A stretch of DNA of 64,000 nucleotides from DATKZS01 sp035527835 [NCBI: bacterium] (GTDB lineage Bacteria > RBG-13-61-14): positions 15,460 through 79,459 of the forward strand of contig DATKZS010000102.1 in assembly GCA_035527835.1 (NCBI GenBank), written 5' to 3'. The notes under the pieces are model-generated. The model saw only the letters and a program-made list of their open reading frames with translations. It was not told the origin of the DNA and did no database searches. Positions 11,744-22,465 of this stretch are shown here, one piece after another. The position numbers and the translations under genes are program-made. Each line of letters starts with the position of its first letter. Within the stretch, counting starts at the first letter, position 1.

Positions 11744-12997
11744 ATGAGCAACAAGGAACATTCATTCGACACCAAGGTGATCCATGCAGGGCAGACGCCC
11801 GACGCCTGGCTGAACTCCACTCTCGCCCCCGTTTTCCAGAGTGCGGCGCACCGTTTCCCCGACGCGGAGGGCCTCTCGCGCGTGTTCGCGGGCAAGGAGC
11901 CCGGACATATTTACATGCGCCTTAGAAACCCGACCAACGAGGCCCTGGAGCGAAGGGTCAGCGCGCTGGAAGGAGCCATCGGCGCCGTGGCCACCTCCTC
12001 CGGCATGGCCGCCATCACCGACGCCGTGCTCGCCATCCTCAAAGCCGGAGACCACATAGTGGCCGGCAACTCGCTGTTCATGAGCACCTACCTCCTCTTC
12101 ACGCAGGTCATCAAGAAGTTCGGGATCGAGGTCACCCTGGTTGATCCCATGAAACCGGAGGAATGGAAAAAGGCGGTGAAGCCCAGCACCCGCCTCTTCT
12201 TCGCCGAGACCATCGGCAATCCGGTGATGGACGTGCCCGACCTGGCCAGGCTCGCCGCCGTTGCCCACGACGCCGGCTGCCCGCTGGTCGTGGACAACAC
12301 CCTGGCCACGCCCTGGCTCTGCCGGCCCCTGGACCTCGGCGCCGACATCGTGGTCCACTCCACCACCAAGTTCCTGAACGGACACGGCTCCGCGGTGGGC
12401 GGCATCATCCTGGACTCGGGCAAGTTCGGCTGGCCCGACGACCGCTACGCGGACTTCAAGCCGTTCAAGGACCGGGCCGGGGCCAGGGCCTTCCTCGACC
12501 GCGTCTGGCGAGAGATCCACATCAACTTCGGCACCAGCGCCGCGCCCTGGCACTCCTACCTCACCTTGATCGGCATTGACACGCTGGCCCTGCGCATGGA
12601 GCGGCACTGCCGCAACGCCGAGGCGCTCGCGGTGTGGCTTAAAGCACACCCCAAGGTCAAGTGGGTCAACTACCCGGGCCTGCCCGACCATCCCGCGCAC
12701 CCCGTGGCCCGCAGCCAGTTCAAGGGACTCGGCTTCGGCGGCCTGCTCACCTTCGGACTCGCCGACGAAAAAGCCTGCTTCGAGCTGATCCGCAGGCTCA
12801 AGCTCGTCTATCACCTGGCCAACCTGGGCGACTGCAAGACGCTCATCATCCACCCCTGGTCAAGCCAGTACGTGAGCTTCCCGGAAGACCGCCGCCGGGC
12901 GCTCAACATCTTCCCGGACCTGCTGCGCGTCTCCGTCGGAATCGAGGCCATTGACGACATCATCGGAGACTTCGACCAGGCCCTTTCCCAGTTATAA
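11744..12997 (+). CDS. metY: O-acetylhomoserine sulfhydrylase / cystathionine gamma-synthase family enzyme
   Basis: Cys/Met-metabolism PLP enzyme. 417 residues from ATG 11744 (AAGGAGG 8 bases upstream). PLP lysine Lys209 in [11 protein letters not shown], cofactor Asp in VVDNTLATP, substrate region [11 protein letters not shown]. The adjacent metX makes O-acetylhomoserine, so direct sulfhydrylation to homocysteine (MetY/MetZ role) is the natural reading; family members that act as cystathionine gamma-synthase or gamma-lyase cannot be excluded by sequence alone. It is separated from metX by 17 bp. Confidence 0.85.
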
Positions 12998-13014
12998 TAT
13001 TAAAGGCAAGGCGG

Positions 13015-14229
13015 ATGAAGAGCGCAAAGAAGATAATCAGGGAGCCCTGGCGGGCGCGCGAATCGGTGGGCATCGTCTCCACCAGGCACTATACCTTTGC
13101 CCAGACCCCCCGCGAGATGACCCTCGACAGCGGGCTCACCCTCGGGCCCATCACCCTGGCCTATGAGACCTACGGCGAGCTCAACCGCGACAAATCTAAC
13201 GCCGTGCTCATCTGCCACGCGCTGTCCGGCGACGCCCACGCCGCGGGCTATCATGACAAGGACGACAACAAAACCGGATGGTGGGACCTCGTGATCGGGC
13301 CCGGCAAGCCCTTCGATACCAATAAATACTTCGTGATCTGCTCGAACATCATCGGCGGGTGCAAAGGCAGCAGCGGCCCGTCCTCCATAAACCCCCGGAC
13401 CGGAGAGCCTTATGGCCTCCAGTTCCCGGTGATCACCATCGCCGACATGGTCCGGGCCCAGCATGCGCTCATCCAACACCTCGGCGTCAAGCGCCTGCTC
13501 AACGTGGTCGGCGGCTCGATGGGCGGGATGCAGGCCCTGCAATGGGCCGTGGACTACCCGGACATGGTGGGCTCCGCCACCTTGATCGCCACCTGCGCCA
13601 AGCTATCGGCCCAGGGCATCGCCTTTAACGCCGTGGGCCGCCGCGCCATCATGTCGGACCCGGCCTGGAAGGAAGGCCGCTACTACGGCGGGCCTTACCC
13701 CAACCCCGGCCTCTCGCTGGCCCGCATGATCGCCCACATCACCTATCTGTCCGACGAGTCGCTCCACGAAAAGTTCGGCCGCCGGCTCCAGGACCGGGAC
13801 AAGATCGGCTACACCTTCACCACCGAGTTCCAGGTGGAGAGCTACCTCGATCACCAGGGCGAGAGCTTCATCCGCCGCTTCGACGCCAACTCCTATTTAT
13901 ACATCACCAAGGCCATGGACTACTTCGACCTGACCCTGGGCGGCGCGCGCACCCTGGCCCGCGCGCTCGCCGGCGTCAAGTCGAGATTCCTTGTCATCTC
14001 CTTCTCCTCCGACTGGCTCTATCCGTCGGAGGAATCAAAGGAAATCGTGCGCGCCCTCAAAATGAACAACGCCGACGTGGCCTCCTGCGAAATCCAGAGC
14101 AACTACGGCCACGACTCCTTCCTCCTGCCCTGCCAGCTCCAGGAGGAAATGATCGCCCGCTTCCTGGCCGCCAACCTCAAGGGCAACGGAGTGGACCTCC
14201 CCGCCACCGGCGCCTGCCTTGTCAAGTAA
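13015..14229 (+). CDS. metX: Homoserine O-acetyltransferase
   Basis: Alpha/beta-hydrolase-fold enzyme that acylates homoserine for methionine synthesis. 404 residues. Nucleophile Ser168 in the elbow GGSMGG, catalytic Asp in SSDWLYP and His in YGHDSFL, and the family signatures [14 protein letters not shown] and GGCKGSSGP. Acetyl versus succinyl specificity cannot be settled by eye. It directly follows metY and provides its substrate. ATG after AAGGCAAGGCGG. Confidence 0.92.
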
Positions 14230-14258
14230 GGCTCATCACAATATCGAGGGGATGTGGG

Positions 14259-15008
14259 TCATCCTTTTTTCCCGGCCATGGCCCAGAACACGGGAGTAAC
14301 CATCATCAGGCTTCCTTGCCGATGCGCTTGGTGCAGCGAGCGCAGGGCCGAGTCGAGCTTGCGCCCGGCGACACGTCCGCTAAGCACGGTCCGCAGCCAA
14401 TGCTCTTCCTCTTTCAAGCGGTCTTCGCTGATCCGGCTGTCCCACACGCCCGGGTACAGGCCGAGCTCACGGACCGCAAATCCCGCCGCCGCGAGCAGGC
14501 CGGCCAGCTTCCGGCCGATCAGCGGATCAGCGCCCTGCCCCGCCAGCGCCTCCATCAATTCATCTCGCAGCCCGGCCTCCGGGGGCTCCACCATGCGGCC
14601 GCCGTAATCCGGCTCACACGCGAGAAGCACCGTGCCCTCCGGCTTCAGGATCCGGCTGAACTCCCGAAGCGCGCGGACCGGGTCGGGGAGCCATAACAGG
14701 AGCCAGTGGCAGGTCACGAGGTCAAATGAGGAGCGGCCAAAGGGGAGAGAGCAGGCGTCGGCCTCAGAGTACTCCGCCCTGCCCTGCCGCGCCCTCGCGG
14801 CCTCGATCGCTTCCGCATTCGCGTCCACTCCGGCCACCCTGCCCCGGCAAATCCCGGCCATCTCTTCCGTGATCTTGCCGTCGCCGCAGCCCACGTCCAG
14901 CACGCTCTTGCACGAAGCCAGCCGCGCGCGGCGATACAACTCGCGCCGCATCGGCCAGGTCCACTCAGCCTGGAGCGCGTGGAGCCGGATCTGGTCAGTC
15001 AGGTCCAT
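14259..15008 (-). CDS. SAM-dependent methyltransferase, class I (UbiE/BioC-like)
   Basis: 249 residues. Motif I VLDVGCGDGKI (about residues 36-46), acidic motif II GVDAN, motif III DACSLPFGRSSFDLVTCHWL (split: DACSLPF, FDLVTCHWLL) and the post-III LKPEGTVLLACEP. This is the small-molecule methyltransferase_11 fold. The substrate is unknown and the neighbours give no clear hint: metX is convergent, and the radical SAM unit upstream is separated by a palindrome. No signal peptide or membrane segment. Confidence 0.75.
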   Translation of the reverse strand: MDLTDQIRLHALQAEWTWPMRRELYRRARLASCKSVLDVGCGDGKITEEMAGICRGRVAGVDANAEAIEAARARQGRAEYSEADACSLPFGRSSFDLVTCHWLLLWLPDPVRALREFSRILKPEGTVLLACEPDYGGRMVEPPEAGLRDELMEALAGQGADPLIGRKLAGLLAAAGFAVRELGLYPGVWDSRISEDRLKEEEHWLRTVLSGRVAGRKLDSALRSLHQAHRQGSLMMVTPVFWAMAGKKG

Positions 15009-15033
15009 TTATCGCCTTTCAAGAAAAAGAGTA

Positions 15034-15115
15034 ACCGCCAAGACGCCAAGAACGCCAAGAAGAAATAATCTATTAATATAAAAATTCTTCTTGGCGTTCT
15101 TGGCGTCTTGGCGGT
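15034..15115. repeat. Long perfect palindrome, CGCCAAGA family
   Basis: Arms 15034-15064 and 15085-15115 are perfect 31-base inverted copies with a 20-base A+T-rich loop. Each arm is built of tandem CGCCAAGA-like units (period 8-9). Lies between the methyltransferase start and the radical SAM stop. Confidence 0.93.
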
Positions 15116-15142
15116 GATTCTTCGCTCAAAACTCCCACCATG

Positions 15143-16504
15143 TTAAAAGTTGGAAAGCGATTCCGTGCACACCACGCCCTTGCCGTCCTTTTCCAGGGGG
15201 CAGCCGCCGCCGCAGAGGTCGAGCCGGTCGCAGCTTTTACACTCCTCGTCCACCCAGCCGCGCTCGCGCAGGTCCTTTAAAAGTGGAGCGGTCCAGATTT
15301 TGTCCCAGTCGTCGGCCAGGATGTTGCCGACGGATTCAAAGTAGCTCTGGCAGGGCAGCACGGACCCGTCCGGCTCGATGCACATGTTGAAATGCCCGGC
15401 GGTGCAGCGCTTCATGCCCAGCCCGTGCTCGACGGGGTCGAGCTCGCAGTAACGGGTCGGCGTGTACCAGATGAAGTTCATGCCGAGCTCGTTGGCAACC
15501 TCCACCACGCGCTCCAGCGCCTCCTCCATCTCCTGGGCCGGCACCGCGTCGGGGTTGTCGGCGCCGCGGCCCGCGTGGATCACGCCGTTCATGGCGAAGC
15601 GCCGGACGCCGAGGCCGTGCAGGAAGCGCACGGTGTCAACGAGGCCCGCGATGTTCTTGCGGCTGATCGTGGTGTTGGTCACGGTGTAGAGCCCTTGAGC
15701 GAGCGCGTTCTCGATGCCCTTGACCGTGCGCTCGAAGCCTTCGGCGCGCACCATCTGGTTGTGGACGTTCTCATCGTGCGACTCGATGGTGATCTGCGCG
15801 TGGTCCAGGCCCTCGGCAATCAGGCGCTTCAGGTAATCGGGATCGGAGAGGCGGCAGCCGTTGGTGAGGAGCCCGGTAACCAGGCCCAGGTCCTCCGCAT
15901 GAGCGATCAGGTCCGGCAGGTCGTCCCGAAGCGTGGCCTCACCGCCGGTGAAACAGACGTGAGGGATGCCCACGGCAAAGAGCCGGTCCAGCACTTGTTT
16001 CCAGGCCGCGGTGTCCATCTCCTTCATCTCGCGCGGACCGCCCGCGTAGCAGTGGCCGCAGTTCAGGTCGCAGCGGTGGGTGATGGCCAGGTCCATCCGA
16101 TAGGGCGCGGACACGGGCATGGAGAATGGCTCGATGCGGCCGAATTCCAGGGCCTCCACCGGGCAGACATCGTCGGAGGCGGTCAGGCACAGGATTTTAT
16201 CCTTGAACTCCTTGAAGTCCGCCTCCGCCCGCTTGCGCCCCACCCGGTAGCGGGAGGCCATGGCGCGGGCCACGCCGGCGTCGTCCTTGCCGTCAATCAT
16301 GAGCTTCACGTACTCGACGCCGGTCTGGTTCAGGTGCAGCACCTTGGCCGCGTTGATGACCAGCACTCCCGATCCGTCGCCCTCCACCCGGAGGTGCATC
16401 CGATAGGCGCCGCCGTCGGGCAGCGTGCCGCGGCAGGTGTGGAAGCCGCGCTCGAGCGGCCGCTTCTTCGCGTAATAATCCTTGACCCGCCCGATGATGC
16501 CCAT
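15143..16504 (-). CDS. PqqD-like/radical SAM/SPASM protein, putative peptide-modifying enzyme
   Basis: 453 residues. Residues 45-105 look like a PqqD/RRE-type winged domain (GVLVINAAKVLHLNQTGVEY), the kind that binds a peptide substrate. The radical SAM core follows with Cys145, Cys149, Cys152 in HRCDLNCGHCYAGG, then TGGEATLRDDL and IESHDENVH. The C-terminal SPASM region carries further Cys (CTAGHFNMC, VLPCQSYF, CKSCDRLDLCGGGC) for auxiliary Fe-S clusters. The ATG immediately adjoins the stop of the DUF2207 gene, whose product ends in six Cys within a Cys-Ala repeat. I infer that this tail is the substrate. The enzyme also resembles AhbC/NirJ in outline, but it lacks their tail motifs and lies far from the heme cluster. 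Confidence 0.75.
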   Translation of the reverse strand: MGIIGRVKDYYAKKRPLERGFHTCRGTLPDGGAYRMHLRVEGDGSGVLVINAAKVLHLNQTGVEYVKLMIDGKDDAGVARAMASRYRVGRKRAEADFKEFKDKILCLTASDDVCPVEALEFGRIEPFSMPVSAPYRMDLAITHRCDLNCGHCYAGGPREMKEMDTAAWKQVLDRLFAVGIPHVCFTGGEATLRDDLPDLIAHAEDLGLVTGLLTNGCRLSDPDYLKRLIAEGLDHAQITIESHDENVHNQMVRAEGFERTVKGIENALAQGLYTVTNTTISRKNIAGLVDTVRFLHGLGVRRFAMNGVIHAGRGADNPDAVPAQEMEEALERVVEVANELGMNFIWYTPTRYCELDPVEHGLGMKRCTAGHFNMCIEPDGSVLPCQSYFESVGNILADDWDKIWTAPLLKDLRERGWVDEECKSCDRLDLCGGGCPLEKDGKGVVCTESLSNF

Positions 16505-18115
16505 CTATCTGCCCCCTCCCGCGCAGGCGCAGGCGCACCCGGCGCAGGCGCAGGCGCATCCGGAGCCGCCGCCGCTGCTGTAAGACCTGGCCGGAGGCGG
16601 GTTGGTGACGGAGGTGATGCCGCCGGTGAACGCGGTCAGACTGCCCACGGCGCGGTCGGCCAGGTTCTCGACGCGCGAGACCACGGAGTCGGCGAACTCG
16701 GCGCCGGAGACCCAGTTGCCGGAGGCGGTCTGGTTTACGGTGGACCAGGTGGAGGTCGGGTGATACGCGGGCCACCACACGGGCGGGGTGATCTGGCGGT
16801 CGGTCAGCGTCTCCTTGAGCCGCGTGTCCATGTGCTTGTCCACCATGAGCCAGGAGAACTGCTCATCGAGGTTTTTGGAGAGGTCGGCGGTGGACTCGGA
16901 CTTCTGCACCTGCGACCAGGCCAGGCTGACGATGGACGTATAGTACTCGCGGGTCTTCTTGACGTTAAAGCCCTTCAACTTTTTCTGCACCACCTTGATC
17001 CAGTCCAGGAAAAGATTTTTCAAGGCCTTCTCGTTCAGGTGCCCGTCGGGCCCGATGGCGCGGAGGAACTGTTTTTCGTAGGGCCATATCTCCTGGGACT
17101 CCGGGTTGAGCACGGTGAGTTGGAGCCTGGGGTTGGGCTCGACGCGCGCGACTCCTTTTTTCACCAGCCCGAATATGATCATGGCCGCAACCTTGTTCAA
17201 GGGCAGCTCGAGCAGGAGCGCGGCCTCCGGCGCCGTGAGACCGCGCTTGATCTGGGCGCCCTCCACCGCCGCCGTGGGCGGGAAGTATTTCATTTTGCGC
17301 CGCCGTGCCATATAGATGTTGAGAACGATGATCCCCGCGATGATGAGGAAGGGAGAGGTGGAGATGATCAAGGCGACGATCCAGGCGAAAAGATTAATGA
17401 AGAAGCCGGCCACTCCGCCCGGCTGCGGCTTCTGGTACTCGCTCTCGGAGACCGGCTCGAACACGGTGGAGACCAGCGACTTGGGGAAGCTGACGCCGAA
17501 CTTGTACTGGGATGACGGCGAGGCGTTGGGGTTGCGCCAGATATAGGTGAGCCGGCCTTTTTCGTCGGCGCCCTCCTGGTCGAACTTGCGGTAATGCCAC
17601 TTGACTTGGGCTTCGTCCGCGCCCTGGGGAAAGTGGATGGCGACCTGGAGCAGGGTCTGGCCGTACGTGAACTTGGAGCCGTAATAGACCGGGTAAAACT
17701 CGACGCTGGCGTATTCCGGGTTCTCGGAGTCGGGGAAGACCATGTGCGGGTTGGTGGCGGTCACCTGGAGCGTGCCGTGCTGTCCGGGCTTGATCTCGCT
17801 CGGCCCGAGAGGGACCTCGACCCCGACCGGAATGTACGACGACTTCCGGATGTCGCTAACCTGCTTTTTGTTGATCCAGGCGCGGACCGAGGAGAGGTCG
17901 TAATAATTATTGGGCAGTCCCACGTCCACCACGTCAATGGGGTGCGCGCCCGAGGCGCAGGTGAAGGTGAGGACGTATTCGATGTCCACGCCCCCGTCTT
18001 CGCGGATGAAAATGTCCGAGCGGTTCTCGTTCACGGCGAAGCGGTAGTCCTGCCCCAGCGCCGGCGCGCTGAAAGCCATCAACCACAAGATCGGGAATAT
18101 GATGCGCTTCACCAT
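16505..18115 (-). CDS. DUF2207 membrane protein with C-terminal Cys-Ala repeat tail
   Basis: 536 residues from ATG 18115, chosen because it gives a clean signal peptide (MVKRIIFPILWLMAFSAPAL, cleavage near GQD) and overlaps the upstream stop; a longer in-frame reading upstream is basic nonsense from another gene's frame. Residues 20-200 form an exported DUF2207 beta-rich domain, a membrane segment of about 25 residues follows (AGFFINLFAWIVALIISTS, LIIAGIIVLNIYMARRRK), then a cytoplasmic helical domain. The end is Gly/Ser-rich and closes with GCACACAGCACACAGGGR. The repeat is encoded by tandem GCGCAG-type hexamers. By topology (exported N-terminus, Arg-rich stop after the helix) the tail is cytoplasmic, where the adjoining radical SAM enzyme could reach it. 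Confidence 0.75.
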   Translation of the reverse strand: MVKRIIFPILWLMAFSAPALGQDYRFAVNENRSDIFIREDGGVDIEYVLTFTCASGAHPIDVVDVGLPNNYYDLSSVRAWINKKQVSDIRKSSYIPVGVEVPLGPSEIKPGQHGTLQVTATNPHMVFPDSENPEYASVEFYPVYYGSKFTYGQTLLQVAIHFPQGADEAQVKWHYRKFDQEGADEKGRLTYIWRNPNASPSSQYKFGVSFPKSLVSTVFEPVSESEYQKPQPGGVAGFFINLFAWIVALIISTSPFLIIAGIIVLNIYMARRRKMKYFPPTAAVEGAQIKRGLTAPEAALLLELPLNKVAAMIIFGLVKKGVARVEPNPRLQLTVLNPESQEIWPYEKQFLRAIGPDGHLNEKALKNLFLDWIKVVQKKLKGFNVKKTREYYTSIVSLAWSQVQKSESTADLSKNLDEQFSWLMVDKHMDTRLKETLTDRQITPPVWWPAYHPTSTWSTVNQTASGNWVSGAEFADSVVSRVENLADRAVGSLTAFTGGITSVTNPPPARSYSSGGGSGCACACAGCACACAGGGR

Positions 18116-18465
18116 TTCGGCTCCTCCGTCACCTGGTAGTCGTTGCCGCAATAGGGGCATTTGACGAACACCGCGCCGGCCCGGACCTCGACGGACTTGC
18201 GGTCCAATTCCGCGCCGCAGTTCTTGCACTTCATCAGGTCCAGGTTGACGTCGCCGGACAGGTCAATCTTCTGCGTGACCTCGACCTTCTTCACGACCTC
18301 CGGCTTCTTCGCCAGCGTGATCCACGCCACTCCCGCGCCCATGCCGATGGCAACAAGGCCCACCAGCGCGCGAGCCCCCGGATTGGCCTTGGCCGCGGCC
18401 ACGAGAAAAAGCAGGCCCAGGCCGAGCAGGACCACCGCGATAATCGTCCCTATGATTTTCGTCAT
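18109..18465 (-). CDS. Small membrane protein with C-terminal zinc ribbon
   Basis: 118 residues from ATG 18465. Two membrane helices (residues 3-25 and 32-52), a charged linker, then a zinc ribbon CKNCGAEL ... CPYCGNDY. Its stop overlaps the DUF2207 ATG by 7 bases, making this the first gene of the three-gene unit with the radical SAM enzyme. Function unknown; it could be a partner or delivery factor for the DUF2207 protein. An ATG 36 bases further upstream is in frame but adds a non-hydrophobic leader and lacks a better ribosome site. Confidence 0.65.
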   Translation of the reverse strand: MTKIIGTIIAVVLLGLGLLFLVAAAKANPGARALVGLVAIGMGAGVAWITLAKKPEVVKKVEVTQKIDLSGDVNLDLMKCKNCGAELDRKSVEVRAGAVFVKCPYCGNDYQVTEEPKW

Positions 18466-18508
18466 GGAGCCGAGATTACAACGGAGGAGGATGAAATACA
18501 AGACATCA

Positions 18509-18703
18509 TTGATTCCCGGTTAAGAGCGGCCTCCGATTATGGAATGCGGTGGCTTGACGCCGCTTTGACGAGCCGGGAGCTTGATCCCGGCGGAGCGCGA
18601 ATGAACAAAAAAGGTGAAAGTGCGACTCCAACTCCCCGACAAGCCGGGGCTAAGAAAAGCGCAATCAAGCTTGCGCACTCCAAGGCGCTTAACCGGGAAT
18701 CAA
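18509..18703. repeat. Composite palindromic element with four small hairpins
   Basis: Outer arms 18509-18524 and 18688-18703 are a perfect 16-base inverted repeat (TTGATTCCCGGTTAAG and its complement). Inside are four mini-hairpins at 18546-18563, 18573-18590, 18634-18649 and 18659-18676, with stems of 5-6 bp. The two on the left have CTTGA in the loop and the two on the right its complement (TCAAG or CAAG), so the whole element is symmetric. It fills most of the divergent gap between the zinc-ribbon gene and corA (18466-18810); I see no gene in it. Confidence 0.8.
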
Positions 18704-18810
18704 GGCAAGACATGGCATCGAGATGGCAATGAAAAATTTTCGGCGGGGATATGATATTATGAGAGAGGATCATGACGGGAAATTCCCATGAGCAAAAGGG
18801 GTAAAGTGGC

Positions 18811-19878
18811 ATGCCGAAGTCAATGAAGCGGCGTTCGAAGAAGCGTGGCCTTCCTCCGGGCACGCTGGTCCACATCGGCGACAAAAGGACGGAGAAGGTC
18901 AAGATCACGGTGATGGACTATGATGAAAACCGTTTTGAGGAAAAGGTGGCGGCGGCGGTGGAGGACTGCCAGGTTTACAAGGACCGGAAGAGCACGACCT
19001 GGATCAACATTGACGGCATCCACCAGGTGGAGGTGATGGAGAAGTTAGGGAAGGTCTTCGGCCTGCACCCGCTGGTGATGGAGGACATCGTCAACACTGA
19101 CCAGCGTCCCAAGGCGGAGGATTACGGGGACTACCTGTACATCGTGGCGCGCGAGCTCTCTTATAACGACCAGACCGGCGAGATCGGCAACGAGCAGATG
19201 AGCCTGATCCTGGGCCGGAACTTCGTGCTCTCGTTCCAGGAGACGGAGGGCGACATGTTCGACCCGATCCGCGACCGCATCCGGAACAACAAGGGCAAGG
19301 TGCGGAAATCGGGCGCGGACTACCTGGCCTACACCCTGATGGACGCGATCGTGGACAGTTATTTTTCGATCCTGGAAAAGCTCGGGGAGCGGATCGAGTC
19401 TTTGGAGGACCAGCTGGTGACCGAACCCACGCCGGCGACGCTGCGCGCGATCCATAACATGAAGCGCGACAATATCGGCCTGCGCCGGTCGGTGTGGCCG
19501 CTTCGGGAGGTCATCACCAGCCTTTACCGCGACGAGTCCGAGCTGATCAACGACACCACGCGCCTGTTCCTGCGCGACGTGTACGACCACACCATCCAGG
19601 TCATTGACACCATCGAGACCTACCGCGACCTCCTGGCGGGCATGCTCGACATCTATCTTTCCAGCCAGTCGAACCGCATGAACGAGGTCATGAAGCTGCT
19701 CACCATCATCGCCACCATCTTCATCCCGCTCACCTTCATCGCGGGGGTGTACGGGATGAACTTTAAAAACATGCCGGAGATCGAGTCGTGGAATTATGGA
19801 TACGCGTTCACCTGGGCCATCATGATCGCGGCCGCCATCTCCATGCTGATCTATTTCAGAAGGAAGAAGTGGCTTTGA
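18811..19878 (+). CDS. corA: CorA-type magnesium/cobalt transporter
   Basis: 355 residues. Large cytoplasmic N-terminal domain, long stalk helix (about residues 165-270), then two C-terminal membrane helices separated by the selectivity signature YGMNF in GVYGMNFKNMPEIESWNYGY (GVYGMNF, MPEIESWNYGY). It ends in the usual basic FRRKKWL. Forms homopentamers that take up Mg2+ and can carry Co2+ or Ni2+. ATG 18811 has AGGGGTA about 9 bases upstream. It is convergent with the peptide ABC genes. Confidence 0.95.
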   Translation: MPKSMKRRSKKRGLPPGTLVHIGDKRTEKVKITVMDYDENRFEEKVAAAVEDCQVYKDRKSTTWINIDGIHQVEVMEKLGKVFGLHPLVMEDIVNTDQRPKAEDYGDYLYIVARELSYNDQTGEIGNEQMSLILGRNFVLSFQETEGDMFDPIRDRIRNNKGKVRKSGADYLAYTLMDAIVDSYFSILEKLGERIESLEDQLVTEPTPATLRAIHNMKRDNIGLRRSVWPLREVITSLYRDESELINDTTRLFLRDVYDHTIQVIDTIETYRDLLAGMLDIYLSSQSNRMNEVMKLLTIIATIFIPLTFIAGVYGMNFKNMPEIESWNYGYAFTWAIMIAAAISMLIYFRRKKWL

Positions 19879-19943
19879 TGCGTGCTTGCTGAAAAACCAC
19901 GTTTGGCTACAGGCACTAATACATCCGTTGCCGCACCATATTT

Positions 19944-20861
19944 TTACTCCAGCCTCACCCTCGGGTCCAGGACGGTGTAGACCACGTCCACCACCAGGTT
20001 CATGACCACGATCAGGGCGGTGTAGACCAGGGTCACGCCCATGATCAGGGGGTAGTCGCGGTTGGTGACGGCCGTGATGAAGAACCGGCCCATGCCGGGC
20101 ACGGAAAAAATCTTTTCCACGATGAACGACCCGGTGACGAGCATGGCGGTGAGCGGGCCGATCACCGTCACCACCGGCCCCATCGAGTTCCTAAGCACGT
20201 GCTTCAGGATCACGGCCGCGCCGGAGAGTCCCTTGGCCCGGGCCGTGCGCACGTAGTCCTTTTCCATGACCTCCAACATGCTCGAGCGGGTGAGCCGGGC
20301 CAGATAAGCCGCCGGCCCGAGCCCGAGCGTGAGCGCGGGCAGGACCATGTTCCACGAGGTTTCCCACAGCGCCGGCGGCAGGAGCATCAACTTATAAGAG
20401 AAGAGCCAGATCAGGAACGCGCCCAGCACGAACGACGGCAAGGCGATGCCGAGCGACGCCGCCAGGATGGAGAGGCGGTCGAAGATGGAATCGCGCTTGA
20501 CCGCGGACACGATCCCGGCGGACACGCCCAGGCCCACGCCGATGATGAGGGCGATGAGCCCGAGCTGCGCGGACACGGGGAAGGTGTCGGCCAGGATGTC
20601 CTGTACCCGCCGGTTCCGGTACTTGAAGCTCGGGCCCAGGTCGCCCCGCAACAGGTCGGCCATGTAGTAATAGTATTGCAGTCTCAGAGGCTCATTGAGG
20701 TGATACTTGGCCAGGATGTTCTCCTTGATCTCGGGCGGAAAACTCTTCTCCTGGTCAAACGGCCCGCCGGGCACGTTGTGCATGATGAAAAAAGTGAGGG
20801 TCGCCACAATGAAGACCACCAGCGCCCCCGCCGCCAGCCGCTGCAGCAGGAACTTGATCAT
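19944..20861 (-). CDS. Peptide/oligopeptide ABC transporter permease, DppB/OppB type
   Basis: 305 residues, six membrane helices, opening LLQRLAAGALVVFIVATLTFF. The EAA loop of the BPD_transp_1 domain is visible around residues 215-235 (RTARAKGLSGAAVILKHVLRN, in parts RTARAKGLSG and ILKHVLRN). It is translationally coupled to the binding-protein gene upstream (ATGA overlap). The usual DppC, DppD and DppF genes do not follow: the next gene is corA on the other strand, so the rest of the transporter must be encoded elsewhere or has been lost. Confidence 0.9.
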   Translation of the reverse strand: MIKFLLQRLAAGALVVFIVATLTFFIMHNVPGGPFDQEKSFPPEIKENILAKYHLNEPLRLQYYYYMADLLRGDLGPSFKYRNRRVQDILADTFPVSAQLGLIALIIGVGLGVSAGIVSAVKRDSIFDRLSILAASLGIALPSFVLGAFLIWLFSYKLMLLPPALWETSWNMVLPALTLGLGPAAYLARLTRSSMLEVMEKDYVRTARAKGLSGAAVILKHVLRNSMGPVVTVIGPLTAMLVTGSFIVEKIFSVPGMGRFFITAVTNRDYPLIMGVTLVYTALIVVMNLVVDVVYTVLDPRVRLE

Positions 20862-22465
20862 AGCCCCGGCTCCTCGATGCGCGTGCTTCTGAGGTCGAGG
20901 ATGTCGAGGCCGTTCTCGGGGAAATTCTTGACCCAGGGCCGAAGCAGCATGTTGATGGTGTAGGAGTAGAGCGGGGCCACCACGGTGTCGTCGTAACAGA
21001 GGAGCTGCTGGGCGCGGTCATAGAGCTCCCGCCTTTTTTTCGGGTCCGGCTCCTGGGAGGCGTCGAGCACCAGCCGGTCGTAGGTCGCGGACTTCCAGCG
21101 GGTGTGGTTGTTGCCGCTGTTGGACAGGAACACGGTCATGATGGCGTCGGGGTCGGGGTAATCGAGGATCCAGCCCAGCCGCCACGCGTGCGGCGGATCG
21201 TATTGCAGCTCCTTTAAATACACCTTCCATTCCATGTTGGAGAGCTCGACCTTGATCCCCAGGTTCTCGCTCCACTGTTGCTGCACGAACTCCGCGATCA
21301 TCTTGTGCGCTTCCTCGGTGTTGTAGCCGATGGTGATGGCGGGCAGGCCCTTTCCTCCCGGATAACCGGCCTGGGCCAGGAGCTCGCGCGCGCGCGGCAG
21401 GTCGAAGCCGCGGCCCAGCGCGGGATTAGCTCCCTCCATTCCGACCGGGATAATGGTCGCGGTGGGGATCTGGTGGCCCTTCAGGATGCTGGGGATCTGG
21501 GAGCGGTCAATGGCGTGGGCGAGCGCGGCGCGGACCAGCGGGTTGTCCACCGGCGGCCTGGTCACGTTGAAGCCGTAGTAGTAGACGGCGAAGTAGGGGA
21601 AGTTCACGTACTCCGGGCTTTTCTCGTAGGAGGGTATGGAGGGCGGGGGCATGGGCTCGGTGGCGTCGAGCTCGCCGGTCTGGTACAGGGAGAGCGCGGT
21701 GGACAGCTCGTTCACCATGTAGAAGATGACGCGGTCGAGTCCGGGCCGGGGGCCGAAATAGTCCGGGTTGCGCTCGAGCGTGATGCGGTATTCATGGCGC
21801 CATTCCTTGAGCCGGAACGGGCCGCAGGTCACGATGTTCTCCGGCTCCGTCCACTTGTCGCCGAACTTCTCCACCACGTCGCGCCGGAGCGGGAAGGTGG
21901 CCCAGAAGGTCGTGATCATGGGAAAGAACACCACCGGCCGGTTAAGCTCGACTTGCAGAGTGAGCGGATCGAGCGCGCGCACGCCGAGCGCCGCCAAGTC
22001 TTTCTCCTCCCCGGAGTTGATGGCCTCCGCGTTCTTGACCATGTAGATGAAATAGGCATACTCCGCGGCGGTGTCCGGCGCCACGAGCCTGCGCCAGGCA
22101 TAGACGAACTGGTCCGCGGTCACCGGCGCCCCGTCGCTCCAGCGGGCGTCCGGCCGAAGGTGGAACACGTAGCGGCGGCCGCCATCGAGCACGTCCCAGC
22201 TCGCGGCCAGGTCGGGCACGGGGTGCAGATGTTCGTCAAAGCGGGTGAGCCCGGCCATGATGTTCACGATCACCCGCTGCGAGGCCTGGTCGGTGGCGAT
22301 GGTCCAATCCAGGCTCGGCGGCTCGGTCATGATGTTGAAGCGCAGGGTCCCGGCCACGGGCTTGTGCTCGCGGCCATGGCAGCCGGAGGCGATGATCAAT
22401 GCCGCCGCTATTATCGGCAGGGACCTGCTGTGCCAGGAATGCTTCATCATCACCGACGCGTCCAT
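20858..22465 (-). CDS. Peptide ABC transporter substrate-binding lipoprotein (OppA/DppA family)
   Basis: 535 residues, SBP_bac_5 family. The N-terminus has a lipoprotein signal with lipobox IASGC, so the mature protein is anchored by Cys. Family signatures: FNIMTEPPSLDW, LTRFDEHLHPVPDLAASWDV, YVFHLRPDARWSDGAPVTADQFVYAWRR (shown in part: FHLRPDARWSDG). It captures oligopeptides or related solutes in the periplasm. ATGs at 22450 and 22447 are alternative starts. Followed only by a DppB-type permease. Confidence 0.88.
   Translation of the reverse strand: MDASVMMKHSWHSRSLPIIAAALIIASGCHGREHKPVAGTLRFNIMTEPPSLDWTIATDQASQRVIVNIMAGLTRFDEHLHPVPDLAASWDVLDGGRRYVFHLRPDARWSDGAPVTADQFVYAWRRLVAPDTAAEYAYFIYMVKNAEAINSGEEKDLAALGVRALDPLTLQVELNRPVVFFPMITTFWATFPLRRDVVEKFGDKWTEPENIVTCGPFRLKEWRHEYRITLERNPDYFGPRPGLDRVIFYMVNELSTALSLYQTGELDATEPMPPPSIPSYEKSPEYVNFPYFAVYYYGFNVTRPPVDNPLVRAALAHAIDRSQIPSILKGHQIPTATIIPVGMEGANPALGRGFDLPRARELLAQAGYPGGKGLPAITIGYNTEEAHKMIAEFVQQQWSENLGIKVELSNMEWKVYLKELQYDPPHAWRLGWILDYPDPDAIMTVFLSNSGNNHTRWKSATYDRLVLDASQEPDPKKRRELYDRAQQLLCYDDTVVAPLYSYTINMLLRPWVKNFPENGLDILDLRSTRIEEPGL

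What the first reader, a model, noticed from the sequence alone, without database searches (positions are those of the whole stretch)
15143..18465. Three-gene unit: zinc-ribbon membrane protein, DUF2207 protein with Cys-Ala repeat tail, and PqqD/radical SAM/SPASM enzyme
The DUF2207 protein ends in GCACACAGCACACAGGGR, with six Cys alternating with Ala, encoded by tandem hexamers. The very next codon position begins a radical SAM enzyme that carries its own PqqD-like recognition domain and SPASM Cys clusters. Repeats modified by a neighbouring radical SAM enzyme are known in other settings (His-Xaa-Ser and CXXX repeat systems; PqqD domains bind leader peptides). Here the substrate would be the tail of a large membrane protein rather than a small peptide. 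All three genes overlap or abut. The enzyme and substrate assignment is inference; no experiment is implied by the sequence.
Basis: partly seen in the sequence, partly recalled or inferred. Interest (0 to 1): 0.82.

Follow-up and report, generated by a model that had tools for sequence, protein, structure and literature searches.

The report
Cys-repeat membrane tail with radical-SAM partner
Bacteria of at least two phyla carry a membrane protein with a cysteine-rich repeat tail together with one particular radical enzyme, even where the two genes lie apart, which suggests that the enzyme chemically alters the tail of a large anchored protein rather than a small released peptide.

Summary
Three minus-strand genes overlap or abut: a zinc-ribbon membrane protein, a signal-peptide/TM protein ending GCACACAGCACACAGGGR, and a radical SAM/SPASM enzyme with an N-terminal PqqD/RRE domain. 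The link is stronger than one locus shows. I collected 62 enzyme orthologs (window plus 61 genomes). In 4 the contig ends before the partner can be read; all 58 others have a membrane protein with a Cys-repeat tail: 50 adjacent, one 2.6 kb away, 7 on another contig. Two separate searches of the same 317 genomes found the enzyme in 15 and the membrane protein in 16: the same 15, plus one truncated, tail-less copy in a genome without the enzyme. Five tail types, from (CA)n to (CHSA)n, match five clades of the enzyme tree with the minimum of four changes. In the window clade 17 tail residues are invariant while codons vary. I accept enzyme and tail as a co-evolved pair. The chemistry (most likely Cys thioether cross-links, as in SkfB or RumMC2) and the physiological role are inferred. 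The DUF2207 label is only distantly supported. I found no named family and no paper for the pair in the libraries searched. New variant of a known kind.

The parts
18109..18465 (-). Small membrane protein with two hydrophobic stretches and a C-terminal CxxC...CxxC zinc ribbon (118 aa), ending ...PKW
   Evidence: a similar protein ending PKW precedes the tail protein in L001, L166 (G605), L177 (G607), L192 (G789) and the truncated G038 copy
16505..18115 (-). DUF2207-like membrane protein: signal peptide, extracytoplasmic domain, TM helix (about 232-270), cytosolic helical domain, Gly-rich linker, Cys-Ala tail (536 aa)
   Evidence: remote DUF2207 relation only through other family members; structure model of low confidence
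16508..16561 (-). Tail GCACACAGCACACAGGGR, proposed substrate (core) region with six Cys
   Evidence: CACACAGCACACAGGGR invariant in 10 of 10 members of its clade, codons vary
15143..16504 (-). Radical SAM/SPASM enzyme with N-terminal RRE (453 aa), proposed tail-modifying enzyme
16181..16447 (-). RRE/PqqD-like domain (residues about 20-108)
   Evidence: PF05402 24.5 bits, residues 53-100; predicted E20-27 E33-40 E46-50 E54-58 H60-70 H75-86 H90-108
15620..16084 (-). Radical SAM core with C145-x3-C149-x2-C152
   Evidence: PF04055 residues 141-295; the three Cys conserved in 62 of 62 orthologs
15200..15406 (-). SPASM region, Cys 367, 385, 422, 425, 431, 435
   Evidence: PF13186; kept in four clades (one of 36 rows lacks Cys422); in the 26-row clade with HCACASSC tails Cys 422, 425, 431 are present in 0, 1 and 1 rows
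14259..15008 (-). Class I SAM methyltransferase (Methyltransf_11) next to the enzyme; possible further partner
   Evidence: PF08241 3e-25; a similar ORF in the same place in L001 and directly after or before the enzyme in L156, L157, L158, where the tail gene is elsewhere (Pfam run on L156's only)

Best explanation
A radical SAM/SPASM enzyme with its own RRE domain recognises the cytosolic part of a membrane-anchored DUF2207-like protein and modifies the Cys residues of its low-complexity tail. Shown here: the domain architecture; the co-inheritance of enzyme and tail, also when unlinked; the match of tail type to enzyme clade; conservation of the tail's residues against changing codons. Inferred: that the tail is the substrate; that the reaction is formation of Cys thioether cross-links, most likely to an alpha-carbon within the tail (Ala precedes most Cys in every tail type); that the cytosolic region before the tail acts as a built-in leader; that the tail is not released but stays on the membrane protein as a cross-linked, perhaps metal- or redox-active domain working in the envelope.
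For: Pairing: all 58 judgeable of 62 enzyme orthologs have a tailed protein (50 adjacent, 1 at 2.6 kb, 7 on another contig). Same 317 genomes searched separately: enzyme in 15, membrane protein in 16, 15 shared; the 16th, G038, has no enzyme match and its protein stops after about residue 154; naive chance 9e-25. Three enzyme-less relatives (G602, G604, G606) have no tail-protein match. The exact CACACAGGG pattern was next to the enzyme 6 of 6 times. Both gene orders occur. Five tail types equal five enzyme clades, 4 changes, the minimum possible, shuffled mean 32 (caveats in the report). Mechanism: PqqD/RRE + radical SAM + SPASM; the best full-length structural matches are the sactisynthase SkfB (Z 21.6, rmsd 5.7, 336 residues, model 36-419) and SuiB (Z 21.0, 22-427); PqqE (21.4) matches the core. 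Literature: RumMC2, with the same three domains, makes C-alpha thioethers; passages describe a bridge to a labelled Ala residue, and an RRE-deleted enzyme cleaved SAM but did not modify the peptide (PMC8188230, passages); QhpD makes thioethers in a protein subunit (PMC7876137, passages). Topology: hydropathy gives a TM helix after the signal peptide with a positive C-flank, which would put the tail in the cytosol with the enzyme.
Against: No experiment. The co-occurrence figure ignores relatedness and linkage. The RRE passes Pfam's cutoff only in the window enzyme; of six other enzymes scanned it is sub-threshold in one (L110, 16.3 bits) and unlisted in five. In the fold comparison, viperin chains, which are not peptide maturases, tie with the best rows over the radical SAM core alone (Z 20.5-21.1). 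The 26-member HCACASSC clade has lost three SPASM Cys, so its auxiliary clusters and perhaps its chemistry differ. Enzyme and tail could cooperate without covalent modification. Membrane-protein model confidence is low (pLDDT 50), so topology rests on simple hydropathy.
Confidence: 0.74

Rival explanations
1. The tail is an unmodified metal- or Fe-S-binding ligand cluster (metallothionein-like) that works with the radical enzyme, for example by supplying or storing iron-sulfur clusters, and is not its substrate.
For: Dense Cys (and Cys-His in the CHSA type) is metal-ligand-like; a zinc-ribbon protein is encoded next door in several members of the window clade; co-inheritance fits equally well.
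Against: The enzyme carries an RRE, a peptide-recognition domain of radical SAM peptide maturases; tail type tracks enzyme clade; CHSA (period 4) and CA (period 2) tails share A-C pairs rather than one metal-site spacing.
Confidence: 0.15
2. The genes are merely operon neighbours kept together by descent or co-transfer, with no functional contact.
For: Many loci share gene order within a clade.
Against: Seven genomes keep both genes on different contigs; both gene orders occur; of the enzyme-less genomes in which I sought the protein by profile none had a full-length match, and the one partial match is truncated.
Confidence: 0.03
3. The tail is a precursor (core peptide) that is modified, then cut off and released as a RiPP product or cofactor.
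For: In two clades the repeat is followed by further residues, in L068 by a TPM domain, so processing is conceivable; classical RiPP logic uses RRE-bearing radical SAM enzymes.
Against: In the window clade and two others the tail is at the very C-terminus of a membrane protein of about 450-600 aa; a Gly-rich linker looks like a tether. I noticed no constant protease or exporter in the ORF lists that I printed, but neighbours were not systematically annotated.
Confidence: 0.08

Closest known systems
Sactisynthases and related RRE/radical SAM/SPASM maturases (SkfB, SuiB, RumMC2; CteB for 5wgg/5why, name recalled)
   Same: Same three-domain architecture; SkfB, SuiB and 5wgg are among the best PDB sequence and fold matches; Cys-rich targets
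   Different: Their substrates are peptides; here the target region is a tail of a membrane protein of about 360-690 aa, and the enzyme scores far below the cutoffs of the 25 NCBIfam models listed for it (80 matched)
QhpD (quinohemoprotein amine dehydrogenase maturation)
   Same: Radical SAM enzyme cross-linking Cys within a functional protein subunit, encoded in the same operon as its substrate (PMC7876137, passages)
   Different: Substrate is a subunit of about 15 kDa with a 28-residue leader and Cys-to-Asp/Glu bridges; not compared by sequence here
Cys-Xaa-Xaa-Xaa repeat radical SAM target protein (NCBIfam TIGR04117)
   Same: Tandem Cys repeats of period 4 as presumed radical SAM targets; the (CHSA) protein L110 gives a weak hit, E 0.084, 13 bits of a cutoff of 50
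   Different: The model is 98 positions long (small peptides, recalled); here a membrane-protein tail; the CA type has period 2
DUF2207 (PF09972) membrane proteins
   Same: N-terminal extracytoplasmic domain of a membrane protein; 5 of 29 family members hit PF09972 at E<=0.1
   Different: The window protein itself has no hit; a Streptococcus mutans DUF2207 mutant shows acid and peroxide sensitivity (PMC10457818, abstract); no paper holds both DUF2207 and radical SAM in the library searched

Membership tests
RRE-containing radical SAM/SPASM peptide maturase | Radical SAM core with CX3CX2C | tested here: met
   PF04055 3e-24; three Cys in 62 of 62 orthologs
RRE-containing radical SAM/SPASM peptide maturase | SPASM domain with auxiliary-cluster Cys | tested here: met
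   PF13186 2e-9 in the window enzyme; six Cys kept in four of five clades (one of 36 rows lacks one), three almost wholly lost in the 26-row clade
RRE-containing radical SAM/SPASM peptide maturase | PqqD-like RRE domain | tested here: met
   Window enzyme: 24.5 bits against 23.4, model topology, SuiB and SkfB alignments reach residues 22 and 36. Other members: sub-threshold in L110, unlisted in five others scanned
RRE-containing radical SAM/SPASM peptide maturase | Acts on a peptide or protein partner | not testable with these tools
   Only genomic association with the tail protein
Sactipeptide/ranthipeptide synthase | Installs Cys thioether cross-links | not testable with these tools
   Needs mass spectrometry; only architecture and Cys-rich target are consistent
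Sactipeptide/ranthipeptide synthase | Meets a named NCBIfam cutoff (SkfB, AlbA, StsB) | tested here: not met
   SkfB 91 of 300, StsB 102 of 625, AlbA 73 of 850 bits; best of all models PqqE 144 of 381
CXXX-repeat target (TIGR04117) | Target protein meets TIGR04117 cutoff | tested here: not met
   13 of 50 bits for the CHSA protein L110; no hit for P0002 or for L071, L070, L034, L107
His-Xaa-Ser system | HxsC-type enzyme | tested here: not met
   HxsC 68.6 of 267.9 bits
DUF2207 (PF09972) | Pfam cutoff 24.4 bits | tested here: inconclusive
   Window protein no hit at E<=1; relatives up to 23.5 bits where seen, best E 5e-5 among 29

The most novel reading that the evidence does not exclude
A previously undescribed class of radical-SAM-modified membrane proteins: the cell uses RiPP chemistry not to make a released product but to build a permanently tethered, cross-linked Cys-repeat domain on the cytosolic tail of a conserved envelope protein. 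The tail sequence has co-diversified with the enzyme (CA, CA with VSC, HCACASSC, CA with GGCT, CHSA), and loss of the enzyme is accompanied by loss or decay of the protein.
Probability: 0.55. Interest if true: 0.85.

Novelty: new variant of a known kind. Interest (0 to 1): 0.74.

Why it matters
It gives a directly testable enzyme-substrate pair for a radical SAM family without a name in NCBIfam, found in Firmicutes and in at least one other phylum, and a first functional handle on DUF2207-like membrane proteins with strange low-complexity tails. If the tail is cross-linked and stays attached, radical SAM peptide chemistry would serve as a maturation step for an envelope protein, widening a field now centred on small peptides.

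Tried and rejected
Rejected: (1) chance or slippage of GC-rich hexamers: tail codons vary while residues are fixed. (2) Simple operon hitch-hiking: unlinked pairs. (3) Filing the enzyme under a named family: cutoffs of all models listed were missed (best 25 of 68-100 shown per enzyme). (4) An apparent enzyme-tail gene fusion in L056: a run of N bridges the two genes, so it is taken as an artefact. (5) Plasmid carriage: 193 plasmid records match, but the 10 listed are distant PqqE-like or pseudo-SAM proteins and only 1 of 193 covers 80% of the query. (6) No Rfam hit in 12000-22000. (7) No solved structure related to the tail protein by profile. (8) The membrane-protein model (pLDDT 50) was too weak for a fold search, which I did not run.

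Not tested: tails of ordinary DUF2207 proteins as a control; a phylogeny-corrected co-occurrence test; whether enzyme-less genomes hold other tail types. The tail protein was sought independently of the enzyme only (60 genomes: full-length match in G001, partial ones in G038; 398, one tail pattern; 13; 317).

Limits of counts: orthologs were taken by score gap. With profile A4 the lowest family member has 335 bits and the best other radical SAM protein 222. Left out as other radical SAM proteins: 13 genomes and 39 genomes (40 matches); of these only one region (L113) was read, and no Cys-repeat protein was found in it. With the narrower profile A3 the three CHSA members (187-202 bits) stand only a little above the rest (164). 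Dropped as unreadable at contig ends: G061, G092, G550, G438 (the last shows the start of a tail). The script missed the tails of the window and L001 because its expression asked for four CX units in a row; they are counted. Genome groups are unnamed, so statements on phyla rest on the named contigs L001 and L002 and on the group settings of the searches.
Full report
What is there. On the minus strand of the window three genes overlap or abut: a 118-aa membrane protein with a CxxC/CxxC ribbon (18465-18109), a 536-aa signal-peptide and TM protein (18115-16505) that ends GCACACAGCACACAGGGR, and, starting on the base after its stop, a 453-aa enzyme (16504-15143). A Methyltransf_11 methyltransferase follows (15008-14259). 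The enzyme has a PqqD-like domain (24.5 bits, cutoff 23.4), a radical SAM core and a SPASM domain. It scores well below the cutoff of each of the 25 NCBIfam models listed for it, of 80 that matched. The membrane protein has no Pfam or NCBIfam hit at E<=1.

Relatives. One scan of genome contigs found two relatives. L001, a MAG called delta proteobacterium, has the same three genes and the methyltransferase; the enzyme is 69% and the membrane protein 55-56% identical, and the last 18 residues are identical. L002, Firmicutes CAG:176, has the enzyme next to a membrane protein of similar start, cut by the contig end. From their genomes (handles G001, G061) and from further ones I searched relatives and phyla with enzyme profiles: 26 of 149 relatives of G061, 18 of 398 genomes of its phylum (15 at E<=1e-87, G061 again among them, plus three of the CHSA type at 1e-55 to 1e-60), 1 of 3 of the phylum of G001, which is G001 itself, 9 of 193 relatives of G038 and 15 of 317 relatives of G698, of which 8 were new. 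A search of relatives of G218 gave no new member but showed the score gap to other radical SAM proteins. With the window this gives 62 enzymes.

The partner. Reading the flanks shows a membrane protein with a Cys-repeat segment beside the enzyme (gaps up to 211 bp, many overlapping) in 50 of 62 cases and 2.6 kb away in one (G679). In four cases the contig ends too early (G061, G092, G550, G438). In seven (G670, G607, G603, G605, G816, G807, G790) I saw no tailed protein beside the enzyme, but a profile search of those genomes found one on another contig, with tails containing CACACAGCACACAGGGR (six) or CHSA repeats (G790). So 58 of 58 judgeable genomes have both.

Independent searches. In 398 genomes the DNA pattern for CACACAGGG matched 6, with none for the reversed control; all 6 lie in membrane proteins touching the enzyme gene. 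In the same 317 genomes the enzyme profile matched 15 and the membrane-protein profile 16. Fifteen are shared; the extra one, G038, has no enzyme match and its protein matches only residues 8-154 and then stops. Three other relatives without the enzyme, G602, G604 and G606, have no match. A naive probability for the overlap is 9e-25; genomes are related and many pairs are linked, so it is only descriptive.

Tail types and co-evolution. I sorted the tails into five types after seeing them: GCACACAGCACACAGGGR at the C-terminus, with one more CA in several members (window clade); SCACACACACASSGGCT or, in G221...AGGGGCT at the C-terminus; CxCVSCACACVSCACACACAGGxGAGC, internal (x varies; in L067-L069 the frame runs on for 267-305 residues, with TPM PF04536 9e-9 found in L068, the one scanned); HCACASSCACACACACAGGGRAGCSAKNLYG near the C-terminus (G067 differs: RCASSC and one more CA); and (CHSA)n with small variations, ending ACV then SGGxR/H or SSGH, at the C-terminus. 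Ala precedes most Cys in all of them. On a maximum-likelihood tree of the 62 enzymes each type is one clade, four changes in all, the minimum; shuffled labels need 32 on average (quick tree; SH-aLRT 98-100 for the five groups; G789 and G221 have long branches and the program warns of long branches meeting). Three of the 62 labels (G061, G092, G550) were given by kinship because their tails could not be read. Gene order, where linked, is tail-then-enzyme in three clades and enzyme-then-tail in two. In the window clade 17 tail residues are invariant in 10 of 10 while codons differ at a mean of 7.8 of 17 positions; in the HCACASSC clade 23 of 24 readable genomes share 21 residues with a mean of 7.0 codon differences.

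Anatomy and mechanism. The enzyme model (mean pLDDT 64.5, three sequences) has beta strands at 20-58 and helices at 60-108, the order expected of an RRE (expectation recalled), and aligns over most of its length with the sactisynthase SkfB (Z 21.6, rmsd 5.7, 336 residues, 36-419) and SuiB (Z 21.0, 22-427); PqqE (Z 21.4) and viperin (up to 21.1), tied with them, match the radical SAM part only. CX3CX2C is kept in 62 of 62; the six SPASM Cys are kept in four clades (one of 36 rows lacks one) and three are almost wholly lost in the 26-row clade. Simple hydropathy gives the membrane protein a TM helix with a positively charged C-flank after the signal peptide, so the tail should be cytosolic. RumMC2, with the same three domains, forms C-alpha thioethers, including a bridge to a labelled Ala residue in the passages seen, and its RRE-deleted form cleaves SAM without modifying the peptide (PMC8188230, passages). 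QhpD shows that such chemistry can mature a protein subunit (PMC7876137, passages). The most likely reaction is therefore thioether cross-linking within the tail; this step is inferred. Why an envelope protein needs it is unknown; a DUF2207 mutant of Streptococcus mutans is sensitive to acid and peroxide (PMC10457818, abstract), but DUF2207 kinship is remote here.

Novelty. Searches of the held PMC library for DUF2207 with radical SAM, CXXX-repeat names, Cys-Ala repeats, and TPM domain with radical SAM returned no papers. A broader search returned nothing relevant in its listing. A mapping study of radical SAM enzymes (PMC9062424, passages) describes small precursor peptides in the passages shown, and a review of radical SAM RiPP enzymes (PMC8326336, passages) showed no membrane-protein tail among them. 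Subscription papers and preprints are largely not held, so prior mention cannot be excluded. I file it as a new variant of a known kind: RRE/radical SAM/SPASM with a repeat target, but the target is the tail of a large anchored protein.

Noticed in passing
window 14259-15008; L001 3551-4291; L156 6495-7232, L157 6678-7421, L158 7042-7785 (reverse-complement coordinates): A class I methyltransferase sits next to the enzyme in the window and L001, and a similar ORF also in three genomes where the tail gene is unlinked, so it may belong to the modification system (Pfam run on the window's and L156's only).
   Followed up: partly
L159-L162, L194-L197: The (CHSA)n loci show a similar ~320-340-aa ORF beside the enzyme, with no Pfam hit in the two members scanned (L194, L161).
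   Followed up: partly
L067, L068, L069: The Cys-Ala repeat is internal and the same frame continues into a long C-terminal part; in L068 this holds a TPM domain (PF04536, 9e-9), and L067 and L069 look alike by eye.
   Followed up: partly
L032-L056 (26-row enzyme clade): These enzymes have lost three of the six SPASM cysteines while keeping a very regular tail, so the auxiliary-cluster set differs between clades.
   Followed up: no
L058 8621-9151 (G038): A tail protein truncated after about 150 residues in a genome without an enzyme match, just behind the end of a zinc-ribbon ORF; looks like decay of the orphan partner.
   Followed up: partly
window 15036-15113: An inverted repeat of GCCAAG units lies between the ends of the enzyme and methyltransferase genes; the exact words tested occur once each in the window, no Rfam hit.
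   Followed up: partly
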